DNA from: Pseudovirgaria hyperparasitica
Taxonomy: Eukaryota; Ascomycota; Dothideomycetes; Acrospermales; Acrospermaceae
Direction: 5' to 3'
Assembly: GCF_010093815.1 (NCBI RefSeq)
Contig: NW_022985564.1
Span: forward strand, 292,590-356,589
Length of the DNA stretch: 64,000 nt
Part shown: piece after piece, positions 4,001 through 52,826 of the stretch
How the letters are laid out: every line of letters starts with the position of its first letter
Numbering within the stretch: position 1 is the stretch's first letter
Program-made: the position numbers and the translations under genes
Notes under the pieces: model-generated
The model's input: only the letters and a program-made list of their open reading frames with translations
Databases searched by the model: none
Told to the model about the DNA's origin: nothing

Positions 4001-7000
4001 TTCTACCGTTCGGATCTCCTGCGGAGGTGCCACCTCCTCGTTAAATTTACCAAGGTGTGAGAATTCCCATGCTAGTGCTTCCTCGCGATGTAATAAGATC
4101 GTATATAGTAACTTGAGTTCCGCGGGACGTAGCTCTATTCTAATCTTTAGCTAACTTATGCGTAGAGGCGTTAGACGTGTTCCTAGCGGGATAGTTACCC
4201 TTCGAGGCTCTATTAGCCTATTAAACGCGTTAAGGCCTAGGTGGACGGCTAGAAGAAGTACCTACCGTGCGATTACTCGTTCACGCTAGTCTAGATACCC
4301 TAATAGATTCCTAGGAACCTTTCGGTGGGCTTCGGAGTCATCTACGGGGTGTACTTTAACTCCCTTTCTTTTATACATGGTGGCCATACTAAATCCCTTT
4401 GATACCCCGGATGAATACCGTCTTTAGAGGCCGGTGGAGCCTGCTATAAGCTATTCTATTATCGTGCCCTATTTATGTACGAAGGTAGCATACCTTGCCG
4501 CCGTAACTAGGGCGGCTAAGTCATCTTTTCTCGACAACCGAGTAACATTTTTAGGCCGGATTTTCTCGGAAAGCAACTCTATATAACTCATTTCTATATC
4601 CGTATAAAAATATAGCCTATCCCCTTCGTTGGTGGGTTTACCGGACCCCATTTAGTACGGATTATTAGTTAAGGGTAGCCCTTAACTAATAATCCGGCTC
4701 AACTCCGGCTTCCGGCGACATGCTCCGCCATATAGTTAGTCTCTAGCCACGGAGTTACCCTCCTTCTCTAAGACTAGAATATACTCGTCCGGGCTGGTTT
4801 CGAAGGTTACACGTTCTTATCTATATACGGAGTGGACTATTAAGAGTACTTACCCGGAGGCTAACCTCTGCACTATAAGTAAGGCCTATCTGGTATATGG
4901 CTCCCCTAGGATAAGGTTATGATTGAGTTCGCTATATACGAATATCGAAGTGGCCGTAATAATCCGACCTATGCGGATAGGGCATTACTATACTATTCCT
5001 ACGAATAGAGTGCTATGCTAAGTAGCGCTAACCAAACTCGAGTTCTTTATATATGGTGGAAGCGAAGATATTACTAGCCCGAGACGCCTCGTAGCATCTA
5101 GTCGAATACCATTTATCTATGCGCCACTATCGAATAGTGCTATACTAGTTGCCCTTTTAGGACTAACTTCCACGGGGTACCTCGGACACTCGGCCACCAG
5201 CCTTACTATCCCTTCCTTAAGCTAATTAATATCTTGTTACGTGATGGCCGTCCCCGTGGCATGGAGGGGTACTAATATATTAAGTTTATTTATCTCGGGA
5301 GCTATAGCATGGTCGTTTCTTTCTTTCTTCTCGGCTCTCTCTTCTCGAGCCTCGCGGACCTCTCTAGCTATAAAGTCGGGGGCGCCCTTCTCGAATACCG
5401 CGTGACGTAAGTCGCTATTAAGGCTTAATAGTTCGCTAATGGTAATATTCATGGTTGTCCCTAGAACGCGCACCAGCCATGCTTCGCTAGCTTCTATGCT
5501 TAGCCGCTGTCCTTCGCGTAGATAGTTATTAAGCTTAACGCCTCGGATGCGTGCCTTTTAACTAGGATTTAGGCCATCCCCTTTATCTATCTTATCCTCC
5601 GGCGCCGTTAGCTCTTATTTAGACGTTCCCTGGTCGCCACTCTTCTCGCCGTCCTCCTATTCCTCGATAATCCTTACGTACTACCCTTCACGCATTCCGC
5701 GGAGACGGGCGATCTTTCTTTCCTTAGTACGATTAGGTGTACTCTTCGTGATCCCCCTTCTAGATATTATAAGTATAGCGGGCTCTTCTAGGGCCATCTC
5801 CTCGCGGATATATCTATTACTAGCCACGTCGAAGCGTTCGTGGAATTCTATATGTCTATCTTTCTTACTCTCGGGCGACGTGACTTCTTCTTCCGAATCG
5901 CTATCCGCCGAGGCCTAGTAGGGACCCTTCGTAGGTTTTATACTAATACTATATACCGGCACTCCCTATAAAGCGTTAATGTTTACTACGGACGTAGAAA
6001 CCTTCACTCCTCCTCCGTACTAGCTTAGGCCGTTTTAAACCGTTACTACGTAGTTCTAGATAGCTTATAGAGTAGCTTATAGCCCTACCGAGAAGGGTAG
6101 TAATGGGATTTCTTCTCCGTTCGCCCCGAAACGCCCTCGGAACACTCGCACCCCGTTAACATTTAGTAATCCGTCTCTAATGTATCCTACCATCTCCGGA
6201 CATCTATATATTAGATAATCTCCTCCGTACGTAATGCATACGATCGGTCTTCGAGGCCTATCCTAGGCTATAACACCTCCTTGGGAGTCTCGGGTGGAGA
6301 CGTATTCTCTATTCTATGTATAATTCTATGGATAAACTTGCGTTAGTTCCATGGGCATGCCTCGTGCTTAGGGATATGCTGAAAGATTTAGCCTTCGCGC
6401 CTACTAGTTAATAATGGCCGAAAGCAGCTTAGGTTCGTACTTCTTAAGGGATGGGAATGAGGGATTAGAGGCAAAGCAGGACTTTATCTTAATTAACGTA
6501 AGGTCTAGTTTGCTAAATCTTTCTACTATCTCGTTAAACTTATCCGATTCTAGCGCGACGTGTACTACGACTAGAGAGGGGTGGTTAAATTCATTAGTTC
6601 TTCTTTCTTTATGTGACTACTCTTCTAAGCCGGTCTTCTTACTCCCTATCTTTAATTTATGGTACATGGCTATGGCTAGCTCTTGTGCGGCTAAGTGCTT
6701 ATTAATACGAGCTAGTTCCTTAAGTGCTCTGGCCTTTCGTGATACGAAGCCATAGATAATTACCTAGTTATAACTATGTGCTTCCATCGTGAGTTGACAT
6801 TTCTCTATAGCCCGAGCCTTAAGACTATTAGGCAGCCCTTCTAGGAAGAGCTCTATTCGCGAATACGAGCTTAGGCTTCCTTTAGCCGTAAGTTTCTCCG
6901 TGATAACACGATACCGGGAGTAGTACATAGGGAGAGAGTAGAATAGGTCTACTTTAACCATTTCCACGTATTTTCGGACAAAGTAGATGGTGCCTTCCTC

Positions 7001-7430
7001 GAGGGTAGAGTTAAATGGAGAGAATTCCTTTAATAATTCTTCACGTAGCGTGGCCTACTACTATTTCTAAAACCTACTTATTCCTTTAATAGTAGGACGG
7101 AGATAGTCCTCGTAGTATGATGGTAGGGAGGTTATCTTCTTATTAGGCGGAACTTCGTAGTTTATATACATGTCCTCGTACTTCCGAAGGAAGGCCGTAA
7201 TGTTTATTCCTTCAAAGCGCTCGGGGGCTAGGGTGGGTAGAGGTACTATCCTTCCTTATCGCGCAAATACTACGAAGAAGTCAAGCATCTCTCTACGAGT
7301 TACTAGGTCGTTGTTTTAAGCTCCTATCGCACCATTACTAGTAGTAGGTATACTAGTAGAGACGCTGGGGGTAAGGTTATTAGTCAAGGGATTACCTTAA
7401 CTAAAGGTTGGCCTAATGCGCCTACCCACA
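1100..7430 (-). mobile_element. Gypsy (Ty3-like) LTR retrotransposon fossil 1, leftward
   Basis: Reading the minus strand gives the Gypsy order gag, protease, reverse transcriptase, RNase H, integrase. Gag-like sequence lies around 7,320-5,950, with a zinc-knuckle-like stretch near 6,200. A protease active-site-like stretch lies near 5,150-5,050. RT similarity runs about 3,930-3,450 and RNase H-like sequence about 3,200-2,680. Integrase spans about 2,600-1,140 and ends in a typical Gypsy integrase C-terminus (YKLAELN...RLKKYF) at 1,142-1,336. The element is broken throughout by many RIP-type changes and is not functional. It looks less heavily mutated than the elements to its right, so it may be younger or less RIPed. 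LTRs were not identified. Confidence 0.8.
4658..4696. repeat. Perfect palindrome, 18-bp arms, inside Gypsy fossil 1
   Basis: The arms are CGGATTATTAGTTAAGGG and its exact reverse complement, separated by a 3-base loop (TAG). The inner 31 bp (4,662-4,692) is the same palindrome found five more times in the LINE copies to the right. It is the most extended copy, with four extra paired bases at each end. Confidence 0.9.
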
Positions 7431-8280
7431 ACACCTATCATCCCTTCTCCATGTTAACTAATCCCTTTATAAGGTGAACTATTACTATCGTCTTCATCGA
7501 TATAAGGTTCACGGTACCCTACTTATGTTATTATCTTCGTGTAAGGCGTTCCTAAAGTAGTATACTCGTGTGGCCGTGTTTGTAAATGACAGCTATGGCA
7601 GCACTAAACAGGTTGTATTTGTCATTTTTGAACTCTTCTTTACTACTTCATCTAGCCCTGTTTTATATCCCATTCCCCTAAGACATTTTCGAGTCGCGCT
7701 ATCACCCGTGTTAGCATACGCATGCTTTTTACGGCTTCTTTTAAGAGGCTAGCCCCTAGCGACTCCGGACTCCCTGTTTTCCGGACTCGTGGCTTCGATC
7801 TAGTAAGTCTAGACTGCCTTATTAGGCACGCCATATACTTCCCCTAAGCTAGTTTCGGAGTCCTAATCTCCCCCTGTAAGTTCGTAGTCCGGGTACGACC
7901 TCTAAAATTATGGTAAGCCATCGCCACGTGTATCCCTTAAGTAAATGGCTGTGTTCCTAGTATAGTAGTCACGACGAACTCACAAGTATCTCTCCCAGGT
8001 ATTATGAGTTCTCTTTGAACGCACGACTTCTTATTAGTTCTCTTTTACGATAGGACGGGTCTATACAATACTCTCAATCAATTCTTCAATAGCTAAGCCT
8101 AATAATCAATACCCATAGAGGCCCATGAACGTAAGGAAAGGTCGAATAGTCGAATATTAGTGATGGGGGAAGCGTGCCGAGCAGAATGACCAAGGAAAAC
8201 GCCCTCCTTAAATATACAATGAGCCATGTAATCGAGCTAGGGACACATACATGTAAGGCTATAGGAGCGGCCTTCCACAA
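7431..8280. other. Unassigned sequence between Gypsy fossil 1 and a protease fragment
   Basis: No convincing gene is visible. Base composition is more balanced around 7,560-7,700, where CA and TG occur at ordinary frequency. A short inverted pair, AAATGACA and TGTCATTT, lies about 28 bases apart near 7,586-7,629. The stretch could include the 5' LTR of the leftward Gypsy element, but no matching partner was found, so this is only a suggestion. Confidence 0.35.
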
Positions 8281-8704
8281 TAGATTAACGATAATTAGGT
8301 CTATATAGCGAGGTTCTATATCTTCTTACTAATAGTTATAACTTACTAGTATAATTTACTATAGTATTATCGGAACGTTAATATCTCCTTCTAAAAATTA
8401 AGGATAGGGTTTAGGCGTCTAAGCTAAGGTATCCCTAGAATTATATTCTATTAGCTAATATTAGCTATGATAAATTTATTAGATATCTACTATTTTATTA
8501 TCTTTAAGTTATGAACTTTATAATTTATTATAGCTTTATCTAAAGTTCTAACTTTATATCTATTAACTATAATAGTTTAGCTAACTTTACTAAGATTATA
8601 CGATAATCTATACTCCTTTATAAGAATCGATAAAATATAGTTATCTTCTATACTAGTATCTACGAGGGCCTATATAGTTTTATTACTATTTACTATAGAT
8701 AATA
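8281..8704 (-). mobile_element. Isolated Gypsy protease fragment
   Basis: This segment of about 424 bp is near-identical to 20,823-21,244, apart from mostly C/T and G/A differences. Read on the minus strand, the shared sequence has the hallmarks of a Gypsy aspartic protease (a VDT-type active-site start and a later ILG-type segment). Homology to the third Gypsy element stops abruptly at both ends, so this is a stray fragment and not part of a whole element. It is a fossil with no coding capacity. Confidence 0.7.
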
Positions 8705-11049
8705 TATAAGAATTATAGACGTAGGATAGTAGTCTAATAGGTTATAGGAGGATTTAGAAATATATTTAAAAGGGTAGTCTACTCTTCTAACGAGGTTAAT
8801 TCCTAAAGAGTAGGAATTAAGTATATATAACCTACTTATATAGTAGTCTTGCTTATTCTAGCTAACTTAACCTAGGTCTACCTATTACGGACCGTACTAG
8901 ACTATAGTAGTCTAGTTAAGTCTATTCTAGTATTAGCCCTAATAATATCCTTCTTCTTTTTATACTTCGCTCTAAAGTACTTAGCTATATATAAATCTAT
9001 AATTCTATAAGCGTTATATTTATACGTATATCTAATTAAATCTATATAATATTATTAATAGTCTTTATATTAGTAAACTTAAGCTCTAGTTTACTTTTAT
9101 TTATATACGCGTTTATCTCTTACTTCCTAGCTACTACCTTAGAGATAGCTCCGCGGGTTATATAACCGCTATATTAACTAAGCTTATATTTAGTTCTCTT
9201 ATTCTAAATTTTCTTCTCTAGTATATCTATCTTACTCTTAAGGTAAGTTATTAATTCGTATACTATCTCCTTTAGTTTAGATCCGTTCGGGTCTAGAGTA
9301 GTCTATTTTTATTAGAGCTAGTTCTATATAATCTATTCGCGTTATTACGGTTACTAATTTAGCTTCTTTAATCGCCTTTAAGACTAAATAAGTATTCTAC
9401 TCTTAGATCTCTAGCTAATATATATATATAGATATCTAATACTAGTTCTATTTCTAAGCCTATCTTCTTCTCTTATAAGACTTACTCTAAAGGGATTATC
9501 TCTACCCTAGCTATACCGGCTAAAAAATCTACTTATTATAGTAGTATAAAGGCGTACTCTAAGTTAGAGAAGAAGGTAGCTAAGACTACTACTACTATTA
9601 CTACTAATATAACTACTAGTTACTCTAATCTAGATAATTCTAGTACTAGTATTACGGAAGAGATAGCTATAAAGCCTATCTATATCTACTCGCGCTGTCT
9701 ATCTACTCTATCTCCTTTAGAGGATAAAGAAGATCTTATTATAGATAATAATTGAGAGTTTACGCCTTTGCCGCCTTACTCTAAATACTATTTCTCTTTT
9801 TAGTCTAATATAGATTAACTTAGTTACTCTAGGTTCTTTTAGAACCTTAATATTTACTCTAAATCTAGCCCTAGTAATAATAAGATCTAGGTTACTAAAG
9901 ATACTAAATATAGTTATAGTTTACACTATAGAAAAACAGTAAACTATAGTTTAATATACTTTAAGTATATTAAGGCTCACGTAACCGGCTCTAAATATCT
10001 CTTCCGCTCTAACTCTAGTATTAGCTACTACTCTACTAACCGCGATAGGCCTATATACCTAATCTTTAAGCTCTCTACCCGCTACCACCGCTATACTATC
10101 CTTAGTAAAGTTTATCTTTAGGTAAGTCTATTAGACTATTTTAGTCTAGGGTAATCTAAAGTTATCTATACTAATATATTTTTAGATTTCTATTTATATA
10201 TAAGATATATATAACGATCTTCACGTCCGTGAGACTCTTAGCGGTTCTAATAATTATCTAGCTTCTATACGTAGGGAGTTTAGGGAGTACTATAAGCTCT
10301 TTTTAGAGATTATTAAAGTATAAGTTTAGAAACTATTAATTATTATTAACCTTAGCTTATAATTTTTAGTCGCCGTAAGATTTCTAGTACTTAGACTATC
10401 TATTCTAGAGAGTTAGTTTTAGCTACTAAGGCTATAGAAGAGATTCGTGCTATTTCTTCCCGTCTACCTCGTGCTACTAACGGGTCTTATAAGAGATCTA
10501 CTAGTTCTCCTTCTAAGTTACCTTATAAGAGGGTATATATTCTATTCTAGATTATTCTAGACTATATTAGCTAACTTTAGGTCTAGTTACTCCGCTCTAG
10601 CGCTTAGTTATTATCTTACTAGACTCTAACTAAGCGCGTGGTTACTCTAGAAAATAAGGTCTCTAACCTCTATTACTCTATTACTCGGTTAGTTCGTTTA
10701 CTACGCTCTAAGAGTAATAATAAGATAGAGGAGTAGCTCTATGGCTCTATTTACTAGGGTTTCTATATAGTATATATTAGCTCTATCTACCTAGTTTCTA
10801 TCCGTTTTAGTCCTTTTTAGACCGTTTAGATATCTATCTACTAGTTTTCTAGTAATTTAATTCTTAACTTAATAATATTATATACGTTCTTATTTATTCT
10901 ATAACTATTAAATTCTAGGTTCTAATTTCCTTTAAGTTACTTAAGTATAGGTATTATATATAAATTAGTTTATCTCTCTAAATTATATTAGAGTACCCGA
11001 ACTAGTAGTCTAGTAGTTATTAGTTCGGGTACTCTAACCTTTTATATTA
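8705..11049. other. Unclassified RIP-degraded repeat sequence
   Basis: The stretch is very TpA-rich, with CA and TG scarce. Plus-strand translation gives low-complexity Ser/Thr/Lys-rich stretches, for example around 9,480-9,750, which cannot be assigned to any family. No terminal repeats were found. A strong 46-base hairpin occupies 10,990-11,035 and is listed separately. The stretch is probably the remains of one or more transposons, judging by composition and position only. Confidence 0.45.
10990..11035. repeat. Inverted repeat with 15-bp perfect arms
   Basis: AGAGTACCCGAACTA (10,990-11,004) is followed after a 16-base loop by its exact reverse complement (11,021-11,035). The perfect pairing stands out within heavily mutated sequence. 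It lies just left of the second Gypsy pol region, so it may mark an element end. It is unrelated to the recurrent TTATTAGTTAAGGG palindrome. Confidence 0.85.
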
Positions 11050-15541: not shown

Positions 15542-15769
15542 TATAAGAATAGGGTTATTAGATAGTAGTATAGTTAGATAGAATAATAGAGTATATTCTA
15601 TTATAGAACGAATTACTACTAAACCCTTTTAGTAGAAATCTAAGAGTATATATATAAAGGGACGCCGATCTATCTAGTACGTAACTATTTACCGCCCTTC
15701 ACGTTACCTCCTAACCCTATTAGCTAAGGTACGTATAGATCGGGTCCTACCTAAGGCTAAGTCCTAATA
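15542..15769 (-). repeat. 228-bp LTR, left copy
   Basis: This is a direct repeat of 22,702-22,929, the same length to the base, with roughly 20 mismatches that are nearly all C/T or G/A. It contains a TATA-like stretch (tatatataaaggg) in the plus-strand reading. Read on the minus strand it begins TATTAGGACTT and ends CTTATA, consistent with TG...CA ends altered by RIP. A purine-rich stretch (agagtaaagagataat) lies directly upstream on the minus strand and fits a polypurine tract. That favours this copy being the 3' LTR of Gypsy fossil 3. Confidence 0.7.
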
Positions 15770-22701: not shown

Positions 22702-22929
22702 TATAAGAATAGGGTTATTAGATAGTAGTATAGTTACATAGAATAATATAGTATATTCTATTATAGAATAAATTACTACTAAACCCTTTTAGTAGAAATC
22801 TAAGAGTATATATATAAAGGGACGCCGATCTATCTAGTACGTAACTATTTACTACCCTTCATACTATCTTCTAACCCTGTTAGCTAAGGTACGTACGAAT
22901 CGGGTTATATCTAAGGCTAAGTTCTAATA
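22702..22929 (-). repeat. 228-bp LTR, right copy
   Basis: Partner of 15,542-15,769. It lies upstream, in minus-strand terms, of the gag-like region of Gypsy fossil 3, as expected for its 5' LTR. The LINE to the right starts within about 15 bases of its outer edge. Confidence 0.7.
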
Positions 22930-22939
22930 GATATATAGA

Positions 22940-25900
22940 GTAGAGGTACTCTTAGAAGGCTACCTACGGATAGTACCGATAGGACTATAGTATCTAGAAA
23001 TATCTATATAAAACCTAAGGGGACTATATACGTAATAAAGACACTACTAAATACTCTAACTATAATAGAAATTACCTATTATAGTTAGCGATATATATAA
23101 AATATAAATAAGTTACTAAGTATATTAACGCTATAAAGGAGAGAGGAGTAAGATAGATATAATAGGCTACGAAGCCTCTACTATCTACTCTAACTATACC
23201 CGCGAATATACTAACTAACTTATAAGAAGGCGGGTCTAATATATAATAGTATACTATATAGAGGAAGATAGGGCGACTCTAGAGTATTCTTAAGGTAGCT
23301 ACCGCGTGGGGATAGTCACGCCTTAACGCTACTAGTATATAGACTTAAGCGTTCCCTAGCACCTAATAAGAAGCCGAGATATACTTATTATTATATAGGT
23401 AAATATATAATATAAACGAGAAAACCAGGCTACGCTTCTAGAAGAGATAGATACCGTAATAATAGCTATCTAGGAGCTATATAAATACTACCAAACTAAT
23501 AAACTAACGATATACCTAGAATACTATACTATCTACCCTCCGGACCTAGATAGGAGAGTCCTATTCTATATATATAAGTCTATCCCGCTCTTAGAATAGT
23601 CCTATATAGAATAGGATAACCTCTAGATAATACTATATCTCTAGATAGAAATAGGGCCTCTCTATATCTATAATATCTATAACTAGAGAGAATCGCTTAT
23701 ACCGGATACTATACTAGAGGGCATTATAGAACTAGAATAATATATCCTTCTAGGCGATTTTAACCTCTACTATAGATAGTAGAGAGGCCTAATAGTTACT
23801 AGGGAAGAGCTTAGGGTAAGGGAACTATATACGAGGTGCTATAACCTTCTATACCTTCTTACGCTAGTTAGATAAATTATATAGAGGAAATATAAGAAGA
23901 ACAAGGAGGGATCTATACTCGACCTTACCCTCGCTATAGAATATATAAGCTATAGAGTATAATATTACTATCCTAGTAAGACGTAGACGGACTTAGACTA
24001 TAAATATATAGAGACTATAATAGATATATCTATATCTAACGAATAATAGGGGAGATAGCTATAGAAAGATACTAACTAGAAGAAGTATAGGGAGGACCTA
24101 GAATTAATAATTCTAGACCCCTCTATAGTCGACGTATCTAATAGCCCGGCTATAGATAGAGCCGTATAAGTCCTTCTTTAAGCCTTCTAAAGCTTAAGAG
24201 ATAAACACGTGCTATACTAAATATATAAGCCCCTAGATATAAGGGATATACCTTAAATATATAAAAGTAGAAGGGAAGCCCGGAGACTATATATATATAT
24301 ATACTATATCTAGATAACTAAGGTATAGAAGGAATAGAAAGAGGTAATCTAATCTTGTGATAGGACCCTCTATAATAAATAATATAAATACTAGTATATA
24401 ATTACTAATAAATATACACGCTAGGCCGTAGAGCTATAGTATATAGTAAAGTAGGCTAAGGGCGCGGACGTACCGACGCTACTACTACTAATACCTCCTC
24501 TAATATACTAGGGAAGAATATATACCACGAGCCCCAAAAAGATAGAGATCCTCTAAGAAGTTATATTTCCCCCCCTAGAGCTAGTAGACCTATTAGATAT
24601 TAATAATAATATATATCTAGACGCGGTTAATATCCCTATAGAGATTATAGAAGAAGATATACTTAATACTATTAAAGTACTCCTAAACGATAAAGCGTCT
24701 AGACCGGATAGAATACTAAATAGATACCTTAAATATACTATATAAGTAACCCTACTACTTATTAGTCTTATCTTCTAGATATATACTAAGAACGGATACT
24801 ACCCCTAAAGCTTCTAGACTATCTATACTATTATACTCCTAAAGCTAGGGAAGAACCCTAACTCCCTAAAAGGATAGAGACTAATTACTCTCCTCTTCTA
24901 TCTTAGTAAGATACTTAAGACTATGATCGCGAAGAAGATAAGTACTATACTATAAGAATATAATCTTCTTCTAGTAAACTAGAAGGTAAAGACCGGGAGC
25001 TCCCTAATTACCGCTATCTAATATATTCTTAAAGTTATCTAGACTATATAGAAGTAGAGACGCGTAGTAATATTACTCTCCCTTAATATAGCCGGCGCAT
25101 TTAATAAGGTAAACCATATAAGACTTATCTATAATCTATAGAAGAGACGTATACCCGAATAGATTATAAAGTTTATATAGTCCTTCCTTGCTAAAAGAAT
25201 CATCTAGATATATATCTCTAGATATTAAAGTATATATAAGAAGATAATATATAGTATTCTATAAGGGAGTACTATCTCTCTAATCCTCTTTCTCTTCTTT
25301 ACTATAGACCTTCTATAGAGGATATAATATATAGAGGTAGTAGAATACGCCGACGATATATACCTCCTAGCTATTAATAATAATACTAGTTTAATATATA
25401 ACCGCCTTAAATAAGACCACGTAAGATATATCTAGTAGGTAAAGTACTACGGAGTAAAGTTTACCCCTAAGAAATACTAACTTATATACTTTATTAACTA
25501 CTATAGAAGATAGGCTACTAAGGAAGGAGAGTAATATCCTAGAATAGATGCTTTTACTAAACTACCGATATAGAGTATATATATACTTAGTATTATAATT
25601 AATAATAAACTTAAATAGAGTCTATAGGTTATATATATAGTATCTAGGGCCCTTAAGATAGAAGCTACTATATACTGGATTACGGCCTCTATATAGGGAA
25701 CCGCCTAGAATAAGGCGCGCTAACTATATATCTCTATAGTACGACCCGCCTTTACATACGGATATAAGTACTAGTATATAGCCCTTATATAGGCTAGGCA
25801 AATAAAGCTTAAGTCTATATAGAACTATATACTACGCCTTATATCTAGCGTATATAAAGCTACTAATATAGTACTTCTATAACGCGAGATAAACGTAATA

Positions 25901-26940
25901 AGTATATAGAACTTCTACTAGATATAGAGGGTAATATACTTTACTAAATAATAAGTATAGAAACGTAAGGGACATGCCGAATATACCTTTACCGCGCTAT
26001 ATATATAAGTTAGTATCTACTATTAAATACTACTATGTATAGACTAGACTCGACTATAATATAAGAGTCTAATAGAAATAGATTTAAACTAAATTATATA
26101 AGAGATCGGGGATAACCTAGACGCCTCTCTAGACCGGTAGAACCCTTAGAAGCTTATATGGGCTATACGGTCGTAGACCTAGAATAAATAGAAGGAAGTT
26201 CTCCGGACCTATTAGATATTCTAATAGAATAGGTACCTAGAATAGATTTAGGGACTATAGAAGAAACTAAGTAGATAGATATATAAGGGGCTTACGAAAG
26301 CCTAAGTATCTATCCTCCTCTAAGCCCGGATAGAAGCTATAGAATTTCTATACTATCTATACTAGAGGGGTATCCTAGATACGTCTCTATAGTATAAAGT
26401 ATATAGCCGGAGAGGTATAATATAGTACTACCTTATAATATACCTAGACTTCTATATATAGAGATAATTACTTATCTATATAATAAGGACCTCTAATATT
26501 ACGCGGTAGCTTAATAAGTACCCTAAGAAGATCGCCCGGTAGATACTTATATATCTCTCTCTCCTCTAATACTAATAGACCCGGATATATATACTAGAAG
26601 TAACTAGGTATATACTAGATAGACCCCGGTATACGCCGGAAGAACCCTAGGAGAACCCTAATTATTAGTTAAGAGTAACCCTTAACTAATAACCCCCGTA
26701 CTCTATACGTGCTACCTAAGGGTAAAATAACGGTACTATAGACTATAGGCCTATAGGTATTTCTAATAGCTATATACTTAAGATAATATAGAGGTTTTAT
26801 AAGATATAGTTATAGAGAGAAGGGAGTTTTTCCTTATATAAAGGTTTCTTCTTATATAATAGCTTAGACTAGAGAAGGTATACGCCTATAGAGTAAACTA
26901 CTCTATCTAGTTATATAATAATATTATTATTATTATTATA
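22940..26940 (+). mobile_element. Tad1-like LINE, copy 1, 5'-truncated
   Basis: This non-LTR retrotransposon reads rightward. Endonuclease similarity includes the GDFNL motif near 23,750, from the typical GDFNxHHPxW box. Reverse transcriptase includes an intact YADD at 25,346-25,357 within EYADDIYLLA. The 3' end is a (ATT)n tail at about 26,920-26,940. Alignment with the full-length copy at 28,687 shows that homology starts around the ORF1 zinc-knuckle region, so about 1.3 kb of the 5' end is missing, as is common for LINEs. ORF1 and ORF2 are interrupted by many stops of the CAG-to-TAG and TGG-to-TAG type expected from RIP. The 3' UTR carries the 31-bp palindrome. No clear target-site duplication was found. 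Confidence 0.85.
26662..26692. repeat. 31-bp palindrome in the 3' UTR of LINE copy 1
   Basis: Arms TTATTAGTTAAGAG and CCCTTAACTAATAA with loop TAA. One arm base differs from the consensus (G to A), which is a RIP-type change. Confidence 0.9.
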
Positions 26941-28671: not shown

Positions 28672-28686
28672 TATACTTAAATTCTA
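28672..28686. repeat. Target-site duplication, left copy, of the outer LINE
   Basis: TATACTTAAATTCTA, repeated exactly at 39,229-39,243 directly after the LINE's (ATT)n tail. Confidence 0.92.
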
Positions 28687-28925
28687 AAAAACTCCGAACT
28701 AGAGGCCTAACGGACTAAACTGGTTAATTCGGGGTAAAATAGCAATTTACATACATTAAACGATAGAGTACACCGAGTATAACAACCTCCGATACACGTG
28801 TATACGTATAGTATATAATACGCGACGATACTAACGTATAGAGATACTATATATATACGCTTAAAGACTCTTCGATAACACGAGTATAGACTATATCTAA
28901 TAAACGCCGATACGCCGACCCCCTT

Positions 28926-28956
28926 TTATTAGTTAAGGGCTACCCTTAACTAATAA
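28926..28956. repeat. 31-bp palindrome near the 5' end of LINE copy A
   Basis: Arms TTATTAGTTAAGGG and CCCTTAACTAATAA, loop CTA. It lies about 240 bp from the LINE 5' end. Confidence 0.92.
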
Positions 28957-31377
28957 CTATAGCGGCCTTAGACATTATAATACCCCGGTATACGCTAGAT
29001 ATACCTCTACTAGTACGGTAGAAACGGCTATATAGCGATATTAATATAGATAGCTAGATACCTATCTAAAATATAGGAACTAACTAAGAGTACGAAGTAC
29101 TATAGATAACCTAGACTAAGGGGACCCTAAGAGGGGAGACCCTCCTAGATAAAATTAAATACTAGGTAATACGTATAGAGAGGGATACTAAGAAGGGAAA
29201 GAAGACCCTTCTTTATATATTCCGGGACCTTATCCGGAATCTAAGAGAAATTATAGAGAAAGAAAGGAAGTCGCTACAAGAGGAATCTAGTAGTAGACTT
29301 AACTAAATAGAAGCTAGCCTACGGAGAATCTAGAAAGAGCTATTCTAAGGTAAGCGCCCTAACACATAGGCTTAGATTATAGTAATACCCGGAGCTACCG
29401 TACTAAGGACTACTAGAACCATAGATAGAGTATATAGTATATATATTATAATCTAGGATAAGGACACGCTAGCGTAGGTCTAATAGGTATCCCTAAAGGA
29501 AATTATAAATAAGATTAACGAATAGAAAGGAATATAGTCGAGTATCGTGGCTACTAAAGTTACGCTAGGTAGGGTAGTACTTACTACTATAATAAATACT
29601 ACGTAGTAAAATATCTCACGAGATCCGAACGTAATAGGTAGTATCTTCCCTAGCGCGTCTATTAGGGTAGCTATATACCCGATTATAGTATATATAGTAC
29701 CCATACGGGGATAGGCTATCGGAGTAGAGAATATCACGCGTATAGAATAATCTAACACGCAAAAATACCCAGGGATTAAGATTATAAAAGCGTGGTAGAA
29801 GAACCTATAGGCGATTAAGACAACGGCGAAAAAACACTCTACTATAATTATAGAGCTCCGAGACCCCGCCCTTATATAATATATTATATAGAAGGGATTC
29901 CTAGTAGAAGGAGAGCTTCTTATAGCCGAGCCATAGAATAGAGTATAGGTAATAATATAGTGCTTTAACTATTAAGGGTATAGATATACTATATAAAGGT
30001 ACTTATAGAAGACTAAGTACGGATAGTACCGTAGGGACCACGCTATCTAGGAGTACCCTTATAAACCGCGAGGAGACGGACTAAGAAATAAGGATATAGT
30101 ATAGTATTTAAACTACAATAGGAAACACCCGTTATAGTCGTTAACGTATATAAAACGTAAATAGATTATAGAATATATTTATATAATAAAAGCGAGAGAC
30201 GCGAGATAGTTATAGAATATAACACCTACTACGGGCCCTTTCTTTATAATACCCCTAACCTCCTCTCCGGAAGGTAGTTAGGTAGGATAGTAGACTATCC
30301 CGAAGACGATAGGACAACTAAAAGGCATAGTTAAAGCCGCTACCGCGCGAGGATAGTCGCGCCTCTAAGGAATAAGTATATAGATATATATACTCCCTAG
30401 TACCTAATAAGGGACTAGAATATACTCTAAATTATATAGGTAAATATATAATATAAAAGAGAGAACTAGGCGACGCTCCTTAAAGAGACTAGGGCTATAA
30501 TACTCGCTATCTAGGAACCCTATAAATACTACTAGACGAGTAAACTAACCATATACCCTGGATACTATACTATATACCCTCTAGGACTAGAAAGACGAGT
30601 CCTCTTCTATATTTATAGGTTAATACTACTCTTATTATAGTTATATACCAAGCGCGATAACCTTAGAATAATACTATACCTATAAATAGATATAGGCCCC
30701 CTATATATATATAATATATATAACTAATAACATGTACTTATACTAGACAAGATACTTAAGGGTACTATAGAACTAGGGTAATATATCCTTCTAGGAGACT
30801 TTAACCTCTACTACTAATAGTAGAGAGGCCTAGCTATAGTTAGGGAAGAACTTAGAGTAAGGGAACTACGTACCCGCTACTACGACTTCCTATACCTACT
30901 TATACTTATAGAATAAGTTATATAGAAAAAATATAAATAGGACGAAGACGGGTCTACGCTTAACCTTACCTTCGCCACGGAGTATATTAGTTACCGGATC
31001 TAATATTACCGCCTAGGCTAGGTATAGACGGATTCCGACTATAAATATATAGAAACCGTAATAAACGTATATACCCCGAATAAATAATAGGGACAATAGA
31101 TATAGAAGGACACCAACTAGGAAAAGTACCTAAAGGACCTAGAATCGGCGATTCTAGATCCCTCTATAGTCGATATATCTAATAACCTAGCTATAGACTA
31201 GGCCGTATAGATACTCCTATAAATATACTAGAATATAAGAAATAAATACATACTATACTAAATATACTAGCCCCCGGAAGTAAAGGGGATTCCTTAAGTA
31301 TAGGAAAGTAGATAAGACGCCCGAAGGCTATATATACGCGTATACTATATAAGAATACCCGAGTCGTAGGAAGAATA

Positions 31378-31396
31378 GAAGGAAGTAATATAATAA
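31378..31396. repeat. Target-site duplication of the inner LINE, left copy
   Basis: GAAGGAAGTAATATAATAA, matching 36,638-36,656. The last few bases merge with the (TAA)n tail of the inner element, so the true duplication is 16-19 bp. Confidence 0.85.
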
Positions 31397-31633
31397 TAAT
31401 AATAATAATAATATTATATAACTAGGTAGAGTAGTACTCTATAGACCTATGCCTCCTCTAGTCTAAGCCACTATATAAGAAGAAACCCTATAGGGAAAAA
31501 CTTCCTTATATCTATAACTACATCTCGTTAAACCTCTATTTCGTCTTAAGTATATAGCTATAGGGTACGCCTATTAGCCTATAGCCTATATTACCGTTAT
31601 TTTACCCTTAGGTAGCACGTGTAGATGCGGAGG

Positions 31634-31664
31634 TTATTAGTTAAGGGCTACCCTTAACTAATAA
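31634..31664. repeat. 31-bp palindrome in the 3' UTR of LINE copy B
   Basis: Arms TTATTAGTTAAGGG and CCCTTAACTAATAA, loop CTA. The neighbouring 'ggttcttccgg' motif is repeated several times in the 3' UTR of this LINE family. Confidence 0.92.
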
Positions 31665-32857
31665 TCGGGGTTCTTCCGGGGTTCTTCCGGTATATATCGG
31701 GTTACTACCGGCGTATACCGGGTCTCTTCTAGTATATATTTCTAGGTCTACTAGTACTAGAGGAGTAGTAGATATATAAGTATCTATTAGGAGACGTCCT
31801 TAGGGTACTTATTAAGCTATTATACGATATCTAAAGTCTTCGTAATATAGATAAGCTATTACCGTTATATATAGAGGTTAGGGTATATAGCTAGATAGTG
31901 GCGTATTATACCTCTCCGGCCGCACGCCTTATACTATAGAGAGATATCGGGAACGCCTCTCTTATAGATATAGTATAGAAGTCCTATAGCGCCCGTTCGG
32001 GCTTAGATAAGTATAGATACTTAGGCTTTTATCAGCCCTTTATATATCTATTTACTTAGTTCCTTCTATAGCCCTCGAATCTACTCTAGATACCTATTCT
32101 ACTAGGAGGTCTAGTAGGTATAGAGTGCCTCTTTCTACTTATCTTAAGTCTATAACCGTATATTTTTTATAAGTTCTTAAAGGCTCTACTAGTCTAGAAG
32201 AGCGTCTAGATTATCTTAGACTTCTTATACTACTTAGCTAGAGTTAGCTTCTATTAAGTATCTATACCGTATTTAATTCCGGCCTATATATAGAAGTGCG
32301 CGGTAATATATACTAATTTATATATATAGCGCGGTAAAAGTATATTCTATATTTCCTATACGTTTCTATACTTATTATTTAGTAAAGTATACTACCCTCT
32401 ATATCTAGTAGAAGTTATATATACTTATAACGTCTATCTTACGTCGTAGTAGTACTATATTAGTAGCTTTATATACGCCTAATATAAGACGGAGTATACG
32501 GTTCTATATAGATTTAAGCTTTATTTACCTAGTCTATATAAGGGCCGTATACTAGTACTTATATCCGTATATAAAGGTAGGTCGTGCCATAGATATATAT
32601 AGCTAGCATGCCTTATCCTGGGCGGTTCCCTACGTAGAGGCTATAATCTATTATATAGCGGCTTCTATCTAGAGGGCCCTAGAGACGGCGTATACTACTT
32701 ATAGTCCCTATTTAAGCTTACTATCTAGTATAACTCCGAGCGTGTATATACTTTATACTAGTAGTTCGTTAAATACGTTGATTTAGGGGCGTTATTCGCC
32801 TTCCCTAGTTACCTATTTCCCTTAACGATTAATAAAGTGCATGAGCTAGTATTTCTC

Positions 32858-33647
32858 NNNNNNNNNNNNNNNNNNNNNNNNNNNNNNNNNNNNNNNNNNN
32901 NNNNNNNNNNNNNNNNNNNNNNNNNNNNNNNNNNNNNNNNNNNNNNNNNNNNNNNNNNNNNNNNNNNNNNNNNNNNNNNNNNNNNNNNNNNNNNNNNNNN
33001 NNNNNNNNNNNNNNNNNNNNNNNNNNNNNNNNNNNNNNNNNNNNNNNNNNNNNNNNNNNNNNNNNNNNNNNNNNNNNNNNNNNNNNNNNNNNNNNNNNNN
33101 NNNNNNNNNNNNNNNNNNNNNNNNNNNNNNNNNNNNNNNNNNNNNNNNNNNNNNNNNNNNNNNNNNNNNNNNNNNNNNNNNNNNNNNNNNNNNNNNNNNN
33201 NNNNNNNNNNNNNNNNNNNNNNNNNNNNNNNNNNNNNNNNNNNNNNNNNNNNNNNNNNNNNNNNNNNNNNNNNNNNNNNNNNNNNNNNNNNNNNNNNNNN
33301 NNNNNNNNNNNNNNNNNNNNNNNNNNNNNNNNNNNNNNNNNNNNNNNNNNNNNNNNNNNNNNNNNNNNNNNNNNNNNNNNNNNNNNNNNNNNNNNNNNNN
33401 NNNNNNNNNNNNNNNNNNNNNNNNNNNNNNNNNNNNNNNNNNNNNNNNNNNNNNNNNNNNNNNNNNNNNNNNNNNNNNNNNNNNNNNNNNNNNNNNNNNN
33501 NNNNNNNNNNNNNNNNNNNNNNNNNNNNNNNNNNNNNNNNNNNNNNNNNNNNNNNNNNNNNNNNNNNNNNNNNNNNNNNNNNNNNNNNNNNNNNNNNNNN
33601 NNNNNNNNNNNNNNNNNNNNNNNNNNNNNNNNNNNNNNNNNNNNNNN
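32858..33647. other. Assembly gap (790 N)
   Basis: This is a run of 790 N inside LINE copy B. Aligning its edges with copy A puts the left edge opposite 37,770 and the right edge opposite 36,935, so about 834 bp of RT-coding sequence should be missing. The gap estimate is close to this. An apparent open frame running through the N is an artefact. Confidence 0.97.
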
Positions 33648-36366
33648 GATATCTACCGCGTATAGATATTCGGCGCCGTGAACGTCTAATAGGTCTACTA
33701 GTTCCGGGAGAGGGAATATAGCCTCCCGTAGGGCCTTAGTTTTCTTAAGGCCCGTAGAGTATATTCTCCCCTAATATATTAGGGGAGGCATAAGTAGTAG
33801 GGGTGTCGGAGTGTCTACGCCCTTAGCCTATTTCGCTATACGCTATAGCCCTATTACGTATCGTGTCTATTAACTAGTAATTATATACTACTATTTACGC
33901 CTTTCGTTACGGAGGACTTTATCGCGTTATTATATTGCTTTCTTCTATTCTTTCTACGACTTAGGTATTCTTATATAGTATACGCGTCTATATAGTCTTC
34001 GGGCGTCTTATCTACTTTCCCGTACTTAAGGAATCCCCTTTACTTCCGGGGGCCGGTATATTCGGTATAGTACGTGTTTATTTCTCGTATTCTAGTATGT
34101 TTATAGGAGTATCTATACGGCCTGGTCTATAGCTAGGTCGTTAGATATATCGACTATAGAGGGATCTAGGATCGCTGATTCCAGGTCCTTTAGGTACTTT
34201 TCCTAGTCGGTATCCTTCTATATCTATTATCCCTATTATTTATTCGGGGTATACACGTTTATTACGGTTTCTATATATTTATAGTCGGAATCCGTCTATA
34301 CCTAGCCTAGGCGGTAGTATTAGATCCGGTAACTAATATGCTCCGTAGCGAAGGTAAGGTTAAGCGTAGACCCGTCTTCGTCCTATTTATGTTTTTTCTA
34401 TATAACTTATTCTATAGGTGTAAGTAGGTATAGGAAGTCGTAGTAGCGGGTACGTAGTTCCCTTACTCTAAGTTCTTCCCTAACTATAGCTAGGCCTCTC
34501 TACTATTAGTGGTAGAGGTTAAAGTCTCCTAGGAGGATGTGTTACCCTAGTTCCGTAGTACCCTCGAGTATCTCGTCTAGTATAAGTATATATTATTAGT
34601 TATATATGTTATATATATATAGGGGGCCTATATCTATTTATAGGTATAGTATTATTCTAAGGTTATCGCGCTCGGTATACGACTATAATAAGAGTAGTAT
34701 TAACCTATAAATATAGAAGAGGACTCGTCTTTCTAGTCCTAGAGGGTATATAGTATAGTATCCGGGGTGTGTGGTTGGTTTACTCGTCTAGTAGTATTTA
34801 TAGGGTTCCTAGATAGCGAGTATTATAGCCCCGGTCTCTTTAAGGAGCGTTACCTGGTTCTCTCTTTTATATTATATATTTATCTATATAATTCGGAGTA
34901 TATTCTAGTCCCTTATTAGGTACTAGGGAGTATATATATCTATATACTTATTCCTTAGAGGCGCGACTGTCCTCGCGCGGTAGCGGCTTTAACTATGCCT
35001 TTTAGTCGTCCTATCGTCTTCGAGATAGTCTACTATCCTATCTAACTATCTTCCGGAGGGGAGGTTAGGGGTATTATAAAGGAAGGGCTCGTGGTAGGTG
35101 TTATATTCTATAACTATCTCGCGCCTCTTGCTTTTATTATACGAATATATTCTATAATCTATTTACGTTTTATACACGTTAACGACTATAACGGGTATTT
35201 CCCGTCATAGTTTAAATACTATACTATGTCCCTATTTCTTAGTCTGTCTCCTCGCGGTTTATAAGGGCACTCCTAGGTAGCGTGGTCCCCACGGTACTAT
35301 CCGTACTTAGTCTTCTATAAGTACCTTTATATAGTATATCTATACCCTTAATAGTTAAAGTACTATATTATTACCTATACTCTATTCTATAGCTCGGCTA
35401 TAAGAAGCTCTCCTTCTATTAGGAATCCCTTCTATATAATATATTATATAAGGGCGGGGTCTTAGAGCTCTATAATTATAGTAGAGTGTTTTTTCGCCGT
35501 CGTCTTAATCGCCTATAGATTCTTCTACCACGCTTTTATAATCTTAATCCCTGGGTATTTTCGCGTGTTAGATTATTCTATACGCGTAATATCCTCTACT
35601 CCGATAGCCTATCCCCGTATAGGTACTATATATACTATAATCGGGTATATAGCTACCCTAATAGACGCGCCGGGGAAGATACTACCTATCGCGTTTGGAT
35701 CTCGCGAGATGTTTTACTACGTAGTATTCGTTATAGTAGTAAGTACTACCCTATCTAGCGTAACTTTAGTAGCCACGACACTCGACTATATTTCTTTCTA
35801 TTTATTAATCTTATTTATAATTTCCTTTAGGGATGCCCGTTAGACCTACGCTAGTATATTCTTATCCTAGATTACGACACGTATACTATATACTCTATCT
35901 ATGGTTCTAGTAGTCCTTAGTGCGGTAGCTCCGGGTATTACTATAATCTAAGCCCACGTGTTAGGGCGCTTACCTTAGAATAGCTCTTTCTAGATTCTCC
36001 GTAGGCTAGCTTCTATTCGGTTGAGTCTACTACTAGGTTCCTCTCGTAGCGACTTCCTTTCTTCCTCTATAATTTCTCTTAGATTCCGGATAAGGTCCCG
36101 GAATATATAAAGAAGGGTCTTCTTTCCCTTCTTAGTATCCCTCTCTATACGTATTACCTAGTATTTAATTTTATCTAGGAGGGTCTCCCCTCTCGGGGTC
36201 CCCTTAGTCTAGGTTATCTATAGCGCTTCGCACCCTTAGTTAGTTCCTATATTTTAGATAGGTGTCTAGCTATCTATATTAATATCGCTATATGGCCGTT
36301 TCTACCGTACTAGTAGAGGTATATCTAGCGTATACCGGGGTATTATAATGCCTAAGGCCGCTATAG

Positions 36367-36397
36367 TTATTAGTTAAGGGTAGCCCTTAACTAATAA
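36367..36397. repeat. 31-bp palindrome near the 5' end of LINE copy B
   Basis: Arms TTATTAGTTAAGGG and CCCTTAACTAATAA, loop TAG. Same relative site as the copy at 28,926 in LINE copy A. Confidence 0.92.
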
Positions 36398-36637
36398 AAG
36401 GGGGTCGGCGTATCGGCGTTTATTAGATATAGTCTATACTCATGTTATCGAAGAGTCTTTAAGTATATATATATAGTATCTCTATACGTTAGTATCGTCG
36501 CGTATTATATACTATACGTACACACGTGTGTCGGAGGTTATTATACTCGGTGTACTCTATCGTTTAATGTATGTAAATCGCTGTTTTGCCCCGAATTAAC
36601 CAGTTTAGTCTGTTAGGGTGTGAGAAGTTTTTTTTTC

Positions 36638-36656
36638 GAAGGAAGTAATATAATAA
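36638..36656. repeat. Target-site duplication of the inner LINE, right copy
   Basis: GAAGGAAGTAATATAATAA, abutting the 5' end of copy B. Copy A sequence resumes directly after it. Confidence 0.85.
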
Positions 36657-38962
36657 CGCGATAAAGTTCTCCGTAACGAAAGGCGTAAATAGTAGTATAT
36701 AATTACTAGTTAATAGATATAATACGTAACGGGGCTATGGCGTATAGCGAAATAGGCTAAGGGCGTAGATACTCCGACACCCCTACTACTTATACCTCCC
36801 CTAATATATTAGGGGAGAATATACTCTACGAGCCTAGAGAAAACTAAGGCCCTACGGGAGGCCATATTCCCTCTTCTAGAACTAGTAGATCTATTAGACG
36901 TTCACGGCGCCGAATATCTATATATAGTAGATATCCCTAAAGAAGTTACGGAGGAGGATATACTTAATATTATTAAGATACTCCTAAATAATAAAGTACC
37001 CGGACCAGATGGAATTCTAAATTAATGTCTAAAAAGTACTATAAAAGCGACTCTACCACTTATTACTCATATATTCTAAGTATACGTCACGTAGGGATAC
37101 TACCCCTAGAGCTTCCGAGTCGCCTATACTATTATACTCCCGAAACTAGAAAAGAGCCCTAACTCTCTAAAGGAATAGAGACTAATCGCCCTTCTCTTCT
37201 ACCTAGGTAAGATACTAGAGACTACGGTAGCGAAGAAGATAAGTACCATAGTATAGAAATATAATCTTCTCCCTCCAAACTAGAAGGTAAAGATAGATAG
37301 CTCTCTAATAATAGCTATCTAATATATTATTAAAGTTATCTAGGCCGCATAGAAATAGAGACGGGTAGTATTACTCCTCTCCCTTAATATAGCCGGAGCG
37401 TTTAATAAGGTAAACTATATAAGACTTATTTATAACCTCCGGATAAGATAAATACTAGAATGGATTATACGCTTTATATAGTTATTCCTTATAGGAAGAA
37501 TAACTTAGATATATATCTCTAGATACTAGAGCGAATATAAAGAGATGGTATACGGCATTCTATAAGGGAGTACTATCTCTCTAATTCTATTTCTCTTCTT
37601 TACGGTAGACCTTCTTTAAGAAATAAAGTATATAGAGGTAGTCGGATATACTAATAATATATACCTTCTAGCTATTAATAATAATACTAACCGAACGTAT
37701 AGATAACTAGAATAGAACTATAAGAGGTGCCTCTAGTAGGTAAAACGCTACGGAGTAAAGTTCGCCCTAGAGAAATACTAGCTCATGCACTTTATTAATC
37801 GTTAAGGGAAATAGGTAACTAGGGAAGGCGAATAACGCCCCTAAATCAACGTATTTAACGAACTACTAGTATAAAGTATATACACGCTCGGAGTTATACT
37901 AGATAGTAAGCTTAAATAGGGACTATAAGTAGTATACGCCGTCTCTAGGGCCCTCTAGATAGAAGCCGCTATATAATAGATTATAGCCTCTACGTAGGGA
38001 ACCGCCCAGGATAAGGCATGCTAGCTATATATATCTATGGCACGACCTACCTTTATATACGGATATAAGTACTAGTATACGGCCCTTATATAGACTAGGT
38101 AAATAAAGCTTAAATCTATATAGAACCGTATACTCCGTCTTATATTAGGCGTATATAAAGCTACTAATATAGTACTACTACGACGTAAGATAGACGTTAT
38201 AAGTATATATAACTTCTACTAGATATAGAGGGTAGTATACTTTACTAAATAATAAGTATAGAAACGTATAGGAAATATAGAATATACTTTTACCGCGCTA
38301 TATATATAAATTAGTATATATTACCGCGCACTTCTATATATAGGCCGGAATTAAATATAGTATAGATACTTAATAGAAGCTAACTCTAGCTAAGTAGTAT
38401 AAGAAGTCTAAGATAACCCGGACGCTCTCCTAGACTAGTAGAGCCTTTAAGAACTTATAAAAAATATACGGTTATAGACTTAAGATAAGTAGAAAGAGAC
38501 ACTCTATACCTACTAGACCTCCTAGTAGAATAGGTACCTAGAGTAGATTTAAGGGCTATAGAAGGAACTAAGTAAATAGATATATAAAGGGCTAACGAAA
38601 GCCTAAGTATCTATACTTATCTAAGCCCGAACGGGCGCTATAGAACTCCTATACTATATCTATAAGAGAGGCGTTCCTAATACCTCTCTATAGTATAAGG
38701 CGTACGGCCGGAGAGGTATAATACACTACTATCTAGCTATATACCCTAACCTCTATATATAATAGTAATAGCTTATCTACGTTACGAAGACTTTAGATAT
38801 TATATAATAGCTTAATAAGTACCCTAAGGATATCTCCTAATAGATACTTATATATCTACTACTCCTCTAGTACTAGTAGACCTAGAAATATATACCGGAA
38901 GAGACCCGGTATACGCTAGTAGTAACCTAATATATACCGGAAGAACCCCGGGAGAACCCTAA

Positions 38963-38993
38963 TTATTAGTTAAGGGCAGCCCTTAACTAATAA
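38963..38993. repeat. 31-bp palindrome in the 3' UTR of LINE copy A
   Basis: Arms TTATTAGTTAAGGG and CCCTTAACTAATAA, loop CAG. The unmutated-looking CAG loop suggests that the TAG and CTA loops elsewhere are RIP derivatives of CAG/CTG. Confidence 0.92.
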
Positions 38994-39228
38994 CCTCTAT
39001 ATCTACACGTGCTACCTAAGGGTAAAATAATAGTAATATAGGCTATAGACTAATAGGCGTACCCTATAGCTATATACTTAAGACGAAATAGAGGTTTAAT
39101 AAGATATAGTTATAGATATAAGGAAGTTTTTCTCTATAGGGTTTCTTCTTATATAGTAGCTTAGACTAGAGAAGGCATAGGCCTATAGAGTACTACTCTA
39201 CCTAGTTATATAATATTATTATTATTAT

Positions 39229-39243
39229 TATACTTAAATTCTA
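39229..39243. repeat. Target-site duplication, right copy, of the outer LINE
   Basis: TATACTTAAATTCTA, matching 28,672-28,686. Confidence 0.92.
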
Positions 39244-51204: not shown

Positions 51205-51315
51205 GGCCTATCCGATGCTATACAGCCTATGCTATGTAGCCTATGCTATGTAGCCTATGCTATGTAGCCTATGCTATGTAGCCTATGCTATGTAGCCTAT
51301 GCTATACAGCCTATG
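51205..51315. repeat. 14-bp minisatellite, about 8 copies
   Basis: Unit TATGCTATGTAGCC. The central five copies are exact, and the outer copies carry TATACAGCC variants on both sides. Confidence 0.9.
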
Positions 51316-51424
51316 ATATGTGCCCTATACTGTGCTGTGCTTGGTCATACACACGGTTTAGTCTTCGGGGGTCTGAGTGATGTGTGCCTTTTGCGTTTAT
51401 TGCTGTTTTTATCTGTGTTTGTAT

Positions 51425-51500
51425 GTGCATGTGCATGTGTAGCTGTATATCCATCTACATGTGCATGTGCATGTGTAGCTGTATATCCATCTACATGTGC
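51425..51500. repeat. 36-bp tandem repeat, just over 2 copies
   Basis: The unit combines TGTGCATGTGCATG, TGTAGCTG and TATATCCATCTACA. It is followed by diverged ATCTGTATATCCATCT pieces. Confidence 0.8.

Positions 51501-52790: not shown

Positions 52791-52826
<36 letters not shown>

What the first reader, a model, noticed from the sequence alone, without database searches (positions are those of the whole stretch)
4658..38993. A 31-bp palindrome shared by LINE and Gypsy elements
The palindrome TTATTAGTTAAGGG + 3 bases + CCCTTAACTAATAA occurs at 4,662, 26,662, 28,926, 31,634, 36,367 and 38,963, always exactly 31 bp. A decayed likely seventh copy is at about 7,377-7,407. The copies fall at unrelated sites: inside a Gypsy element, near the 5' end of the LINE, and in the LINE 3' UTR. 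Unrelated element classes should not share such a sequence by descent. It may be a tiny mobile palindrome (a miniature inverted-repeat element that duplicates TA or TTA), or a hairpin selected in element RNA or used as a protein-binding site. The arms stay paired although surrounding sequence is heavily mutated. I know of no described element of this form.
Basis: partly seen in the sequence, partly recalled or inferred. Interest (0 to 1): 0.75.

Follow-up and report, generated by a model that had tools for sequence, protein, structure and literature searches.

The report
Tiny palindrome shared by unrelated retroelements
The same 31-letter DNA palindrome sits at several unrelated places inside two unrelated kinds of fungal jumping gene, which suggests that the palindrome itself has been copied from place to place, although nothing in this window proves that it moves.

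Summary
Six of six 31-bp copies are at the stated coordinates, and 0 of 100 shuffles gave one. A seventh, decayed copy at 7377 is very probably real.

The copies are fewer than they look. The five LINE copies occupy two homologous sites: one LINE is inserted in another with a 19-bp target duplication, and a third is older. That leaves four independent sites: LINE 5' leader, LINE 3' UTR, Gypsy pol and Gypsy gag.

Copies at the first three sites agree over all 31 bases, centre included. Flanks show no convincing homology beyond the unit. Both Gypsy copies lie in one frame, gag-pol, at the same codon offset.

The claim that arms stay paired against the odds is weak. The six full copies have no CA/TG in their arms for repeat-induced mutation (RIP) to attack, and 8-15% of LINE windows are as conserved.

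Best reading: a very short mobile palindrome, working like mitochondrial GC clusters, inserted into nuclear retroelements. Insertion is inferred: no empty site was seen, no genome is held and no fungal collection could be searched.

The parts
4662..4692 (-). 31-mer in the Gypsy gag-pol frame, between a protease-like motif (recognised by eye) and reverse transcriptase; arms extend to 18 bp (4658-4696) here
7377..7407 (-). decayed seventh copy in the same frame, about a dozen codons after an ATG at 7441 that may start gag; same codon offset as the pol copy; keeps an unmutated TCAAG in one arm
28926..28956 (+). LINE site A (5' leader, just before the likely ORF1 frame) in the plus-strand LINE
36367..36397 (-). 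LINE site A in the nested minus-strand LINE (homologous to 28926)
38963..38993 (+). LINE site B (3' UTR) in the plus-strand LINE; centre still CAG
31634..31664 (-). LINE site B in the nested minus-strand LINE (homologous to 38963)
26662..26692 (+). LINE site B in the older LINE; one arm mismatch
28687..31396 (+). 5' half of the plus-strand LINE (split by the nested LINE); its own target duplication is 28672-28686 / 39229-39243
36638..39228 (+). 3' half of the plus-strand LINE, from the second copy of the nested LINE's 19-bp target duplication; reverse transcriptase domain
31397..36637 (-). nested minus-strand LINE; target duplication 31378-31396 / 36638-36656; assembly gap of 790 N inside (32858-33647)
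22927..26939 (+). third, older LINE copy; match starts about 1.3 kb into the LINE, no match to the earlier part found; 72% (5' part) to 77% (3' part) identical
2000..7430 (-). Gypsy gag-pol frame: reverse transcriptase, RNase H and, at about 2156-2317, integrase zinc finger, all in this frame; 73 stops, all TAG or TAA

Best explanation
The 31-mer is a very short mobile palindrome that has been copied into retroelements of a RIP-active fungus at about four sites, and has since been carried along as those retroelements moved. Shown: identical 31-mers at unrelated sites of a LINE and a Gypsy element, with sharp edges and no convincing shared flanks; both Gypsy copies in the same frame and codon offset; presence at LINE site B in all three LINE copies, so before they parted. 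Inferred: that it was inserted rather than original, and that it moves as a hairpin or cruciform DNA copied into a break at a T-TA-A-like target. On that model a 25-bp core plus a duplicated TA makes 27 bp, a multiple of three, which would explain why the gag-pol frame survives. That insertion step is the least certain part (about 0.2).
For: Six copies against 0 in 100 shuffles and a seventh at 5 mismatches with 0.005 expected. Perfect inverted repeats with arms of 14 bp or more and a spacer of at most 10: 5 in the window, all of them copies of this sequence, against 0.05 per 39.3 kb in 20 Markov sequences. LINE A (both copies), LINE-minus B and Gypsy pol are identical over 31 of 31 bases in one orientation, centre included, so this is copying rather than convergence of two arms. 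By its central base the unit lies in both orientations relative to its hosts: one way in LINE A and Gypsy pol, the other in LINE B. Flanks: 4 of 6 site pairs do not exceed the 95% point of mononucleotide shuffles; the other two, set against 300 random pairs of places in the same elements, are reached by 19% (LINE A against B, score 31) and 3.3% (LINE A against gag, score 30). Both Gypsy copies lie at codon offset 1 of the one frame that holds no TGA (0 of 73 stops, against 8 of 168 and 13 of 174 in the other two).
Against: No empty site is known: 3 of 3 LINE copies that cover site B and 2 of 2 that cover site A are occupied, so insertion is not demonstrated. No consistent target duplication lies outside the 31 bp. 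The LINE A-versus-gag flank score (3.3%) leaves slight room for shared sequence beyond the palindrome. 31 bp is shorter than usual DNA-transposon derivatives (recalled), and no enzyme is identified. The gag copy differs at 5 of 28 arm positions and in its centre and may be a relative rather than a copy. Orientation rests on one central base. Arm differences in LINE3 are somewhat fewer than expected (1 against 3.8, P 0.094), which slightly favours a selected site. No match was found in any collection scanned, but those hold no fungal genomes.
Confidence: 0.5

Rival explanations
1. The palindrome is a functional site (host protein-binding site or RNA hairpin) that both retroelement families acquired and keep by selection, for example for transcription or translation near the 5' end of ORF1 and gag.
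For: LINE A lies just before the likely ORF1 frame and the gag copy near a possible start of gag (by eye). All 4 contexts folded contain the hairpin, with z -4.27 (LINE A), -2.20 (LINE B), -4.90 (pol) and -1.95 (gag). LINE3 arms hold 1 difference where 3.8 are expected, P 0.094.
Against: Identity over the full 31 bp including the centre is more than a binding site needs. The pol copy is mid-coding and LINE B is in the 3' UTR. 8-15% of LINE windows are as conserved. Two of the four folds are unremarkable: 4 and 7 of 200 shuffles fold as well (LINE B, gag), and any perfect palindrome folds well. No Rfam family reaches its gathering score in window 1-40000.
Confidence: 0.15
2. It is the extreme internal-deletion form (a two-ended micro-MITE) of a DNA transposon that still exists in the genome, with terminal repeats starting near TTAGTCAAGGGC and a TA duplication. 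A transposase in trans moves it.
For: TA is the only direct repeat that fits symmetrically at the ends (inspection). 25 + 2 = 27 bp keeps the frame. The gag copy keeps TCAAG, which RIP would turn into the TTAAG of the others.
Against: No transposon with these ends was seen in the window: the scan for single arms with at most 2 mismatches found, apart from the seven copies, only 19659 and one LINE-internal place present in two copies. 31 bp leaves little room for a normal synapse (general knowledge). A paper search for AGTCAAG with Fot1, pogo and terminal inverted repeat gave 17 papers holding at least 3 of 4 terms; in the 10 listed none held the string.
Confidence: 0.15
3. Template switching or gene conversion moved a piece from one retroelement into the other; the palindrome is a hairpin at which reverse transcriptase jumps, not an element of its own.
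For: All known hosts are retroelements, and hairpins can provoke template switching (general knowledge). The LINE A-versus-gag flank score is reached by only 3.3% of random pairs.
Against: Edges at the palindrome with no convincing flank carried over, and two sites per element, do not look like switching tracts.
Confidence: 0.1
4. Artefact of sequencing or assembly, or chance.
For: One assembly gap of 790 N lies inside the nested LINE.
Against: Chance is excluded. The copy in the older LINE (77% identical there) sits at the homologous place, and the in-frame Gypsy copies fit no adapter.
Confidence: 0.03

Closest known systems
Mitochondrial palindromic GC clusters of yeast (GC42) and other mobile palindromes of fungal mtDNA
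   Same: Tens of bases, palindromic, dispersed, without genes. GC42 is 42 nt; [quoted passage not shown] In Fusarium mtDNA, palindromes present in one species and absent in the other are argued to be mobile, like the double-hairpin elements of Allomyces (PMC7218506, passages).
   Different: Here nuclear, 31 bp, inside retroelements; no presence/absence difference shown and no flanking duplication outside the unit.
Rickettsia palindromic elements (RPE)
   Same: Palindromic repeats inserted in frame in coding sequences of unrelated genes (PMC10969869, passages).
   Different: RPEs are about 150 bp, bacterial, and encode a conserved peptide in ordinary genes; ours is 31 bp, in a fungal retroelement polyprotein frame and in untranslated LINE sequence.
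MITEs of fungal DNA transposons
   Same: Terminal inverted repeats, possible TA duplication, no coding capacity.
   Different: MITEs usually run to about a hundred bases or more (recalled); no parent transposon seen in the window; no duplication demonstrated.

Membership tests
MITE | terminal inverted repeats | tested here: met
   perfect arms of 14 bp or more at 5 of the 6 full copies, one mismatch in the sixth
MITE | target-site duplication outside the inverted repeats | tested here: inconclusive
   none consistent outside the 31-mer (flanks printed); TA inside its ends would fit but cannot be told from the element without an empty site
MITE | empty sites in related copies | not testable with these tools
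   the LINE copies in the window are occupied, 3 of 3 at site B and 2 of 2 at site A; no genome held; other Gypsy elements too diverged to align
MITE | parent transposon with the same ends | not testable with these tools
   none seen in the 64-kb window (single-arm scan); whole genome not held
Mobile GC cluster / double-hairpin element | short palindrome at several unrelated sites | tested here: met
   four sites in two element classes
Mobile GC cluster / double-hairpin element | mitochondrial location | tested here: not met
   window holds RIP-marked LINE and Gypsy elements and nuclear-type genes
Rickettsia palindromic element | in-frame insertion in coding sequence | tested here: inconclusive
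   both Gypsy copies lie in the gag-pol frame at the same codon offset; that they were inserted is inferred
Rickettsia palindromic element | bacterial host, about 150 bp | tested here: not met
   31 bp, beside fungal genes
Conserved LINE or Gypsy feature | confined to one element lineage at one homologous site | tested here: not met
   LINE A, LINE B, Gypsy pol, Gypsy gag

The most novel reading that the evidence does not exclude
A nuclear counterpart of mitochondrial mobile palindromes: a gene-less 31-bp palindrome that parasitises retroelements, inserts without breaking their frame, and rides their transposition through the genome. It would be among the smallest mobile units in any nuclear genome.
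Probability: 0.35. Interest if true: 0.8.

Novelty: new variant of a known kind. Interest (0 to 1): 0.52.

Why it matters
If a 31-bp sequence without genes can spread through a nuclear genome by landing in other mobile elements, the lower size limit for a nuclear mobile unit drops well below that of usual MITEs, and the question of how mobile palindromes move could be studied in a fungus with ordinary genetics. If instead it is a functional site shared by a LINE and a Gypsy element, it would point to a host factor used by both. One whole-genome search would go far to decide.

Tried and rejected
Collections. No genome is held for the window. The exact pattern with a free centre gave 0 matches in viral contigs and genome contigs; RIP-tolerant patterns gave 0 in viral contigs; a pattern for the unmutated centre gave 0 in genome contigs (it fixes C and G beside the centre and would miss RIP-mutated copies). 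These collections hold viruses and prokaryotes, so this says little. Relatives of the Gypsy and LINE reverse transcriptase pieces in viral contigs: none confirmed; 1 and 14 stretches matched a peptide pattern and none passed tblastn. No Rfam match at gathering score in window 1-40000. Pfam found nothing in the scanned LINE 5' half (29000-31380, 3 plus-strand frames) or in the Gypsy stretch 4700-7370 (3 minus-strand frames), so ORF1, gag and protease are named from position and from motifs recognised by eye (motif recalled).

Considered and rejected. Chance. Five independent LINE insertions (nested and homologous copies). Strong selection on arm pairing: at the non-RIP difference rate of 0.134, 3.8 differences are expected in 28 arm positions and 1 was seen, P 0.094. 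A freely varying 3-bp spacer as target duplication. Shared flanks: two of six site pairs exceeded mononucleotide shuffles; against 300 random pairs of real places one of them is ordinary (19%) and the other borderline (3.3%). Other Gypsy elements as empty sites: the best frame scores against the PR-RT piece were 39-53 in five of six frames and 73 in the sixth, against 35-46 in 10 shuffles of one frame; my script printed alignments only above 110, so the linker was not aligned. No 31-mer lies in 8280-22929 (best place 11 mismatches).

Papers. Strings of the arms: 10 papers, all listed, none on transposons by title; 221 papers, 20 listed, likewise. Topic searches: 9 papers; 98,998 papers hold at least one of three broad terms; one listed; 16, 12 listed; 2; 17, 10 listed; 31, 15 listed. 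I saw passages of PMC10969869, PMC4478555 and PMC7218506 and only listings of the rest. No nuclear palindrome of this kind turned up in these searches; that does not show that none is in print.
Full report
What the window is. Bases 1 to about 39,300 are fungal repeats marked by RIP. CA and TG are depleted: observed/expected 0.05-0.22 in the LINEs, 0.10 in the LTR zone and 0.39-0.55 in the Gypsy element, against 1.19-1.22 in the genic part. From 40 kb there are ordinary fungal genes (eight translations scanned, all eight with a Pfam match). A Gypsy element lies on the minus strand at the left; reverse transcriptase, RNase H and integrase zinc-finger domains match Pfam, all in one frame. LINEs lie at 22.9-39.2 kb; the reverse transcriptase domain matches Pfam in the one 3' half scanned. 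Gag, protease and ORF1 gave no Pfam match and are named by position and by eye.

The observation. The seventh, at 7377, differs at 5 of 28 arm positions, with 0.005 expected. There are five perfect inverted repeats with arms of 14 bp or more and a spacer of at most 10 in the window, all five copies of this sequence; 20 Markov sequences give 0.05 per 39.3 kb.

How many sites. The self-comparison and the junctions show a minus-strand LINE (36637 down to 31397, with an assembly gap at 32858-33647) inserted in a plus-strand LINE (28687-31396 and 36638 on), with a 19-bp duplication at 31378-31396 and 36638-36656. The outer LINE has its own 15-bp duplication (28672-28686 and 39229-39243). So 28926 and 36367 are one site, and 31634 and 38963 are one site; the older LINE at 22.9-26.9 kb carries the latter too, at 26662. 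Its match begins about 1.3 kb into the LINE, so it says nothing about site A. Site A is in the leader just before the likely ORF1 frame and site B in the 3' UTR. The Gypsy copies are at two further sites. In all there are four independent sites: three with the whole sequence and one decayed.

The unit. Written in one orientation, LINE A (2 of 2), LINE-minus B and Gypsy pol are identical over 31 bases. LINE-plus B differs only by CAG for TAG in the centre, which is the RIP change; the old LINE differs by an arm G-to-A and a further centre change. The sequence seems to have been a 31-mer with 15-bp arms around one base (inference). The gag copy retains TCAAG where the others have TTAAG, so the older arm may have read GTCAAGGG (inference from RIP). 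By its central base the unit points one way in LINE A and Gypsy pol and the other way in LINE B. Flanks have nothing convincing in common beyond the unit: four of six site pairs do not exceed the 95% point of shuffles, A against B is matched by 19% of 300 random pairs of places, and A against gag by 3.3%.

The frame. From 7430 to 2000 one frame of the Gypsy minus strand has 73 stops, none of them TGA, against 168 and 174 stops with 8 and 13 TGA in the other two frames. That pattern fits a coding frame whose CAA, CAG and TGG codons were hit by RIP. Both palindromes lie in it at the same codon offset. An inserted 31 bp would shift the frame; 27 bp (25 plus a TA duplication) or 39 bp (the full 18-bp-arm palindrome of the pol copy) would not. 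This fits insertion with a TA duplication but does not prove it; a palindrome that was always part of the coding sequence would fit as well.

Is it selected? The arms of the six full copies hold no CA or TG (the decayed gag copy holds one), so RIP has nothing to attack in them now. Identity over the palindrome is 28/31, 29/31 and 30/31 in the three LINE comparisons, reached by 14.9%, 8.3% and 58% of windows. At the non-RIP difference rate one would expect 3.8 changes in 28 arm positions and one was seen (P 0.094). The RNA hairpin appears in all four contexts folded; it beats all 200 shuffles in two (LINE A, pol) and not in the other two (LINE B 4 of 200, gag 7 of 200 as good). No Rfam family matches.

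Reading. A long identical sequence at non-homologous sites of unrelated elements needs copying. Sharp edges, both orientations, two sites per element and the kept frame are what insertion of a small unit would leave. The closest analogues are the mobile palindromes of mitochondrial DNA (PMC4478555 and PMC7218506, passages) and, for in-frame insertion, the Rickettsia palindromic elements (PMC10969869, passages). It is a member of neither: location and size differ. Whether it is a MITE remains open, because duplication, empty site and parent could not be tested. I give the mobile-palindrome reading 0.5, and the specific T-TA-A insertion step about 0.2.

Limits. One contig only; no genome, no related species and no empty site. 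The collections scanned contain viruses and prokaryotes. Insertion is therefore inferred, not shown.

Noticed in passing
window 10988-11037: A different palindrome: 20-bp arms, 95% complementary, and a 10-base loop, also starting TTAG and ending CTAA. A scan with the first 15 bases of its arm found no other place with fewer than 3 mismatches.
   Followed up: partly
window 28672-39243: A clean nested LINE insertion with both target duplications readable, 19 bp inner and 15 bp outer.
   Followed up: yes
window 8280-22929: LTR-like pairs at 8280-8704/20823-21247 and 15542-15769/22702-22929 (both about 92%), with a second Gypsy reverse transcriptase on the minus strand at about 13.8-14.3 kb; no 31-mer there.
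   Followed up: partly
window 22702-22929: An LTR-like repeat ends where the match to the older LINE begins (22927), so that LINE may have been cut by an LTR element rather than born short.
   Followed up: no
window 33766-33787 and 36796-36817: A 22-bp perfect palindrome at the same place in both young LINE copies; near chance level for its length.
   Followed up: no
window 40009-63756: Genes: amino acid permease, Zn(II)2Cys6 factor with Fungal_trans_2 domain, POT transporter, Git3-like receptor, HEAT-repeat protein, Nipped-B-type cohesion protein.
   Followed up: partly
window 50574-53666: Simple sequence repeats that read as runs such as HPSIHPSI and HPFHPF in several frames.
   Followed up: no
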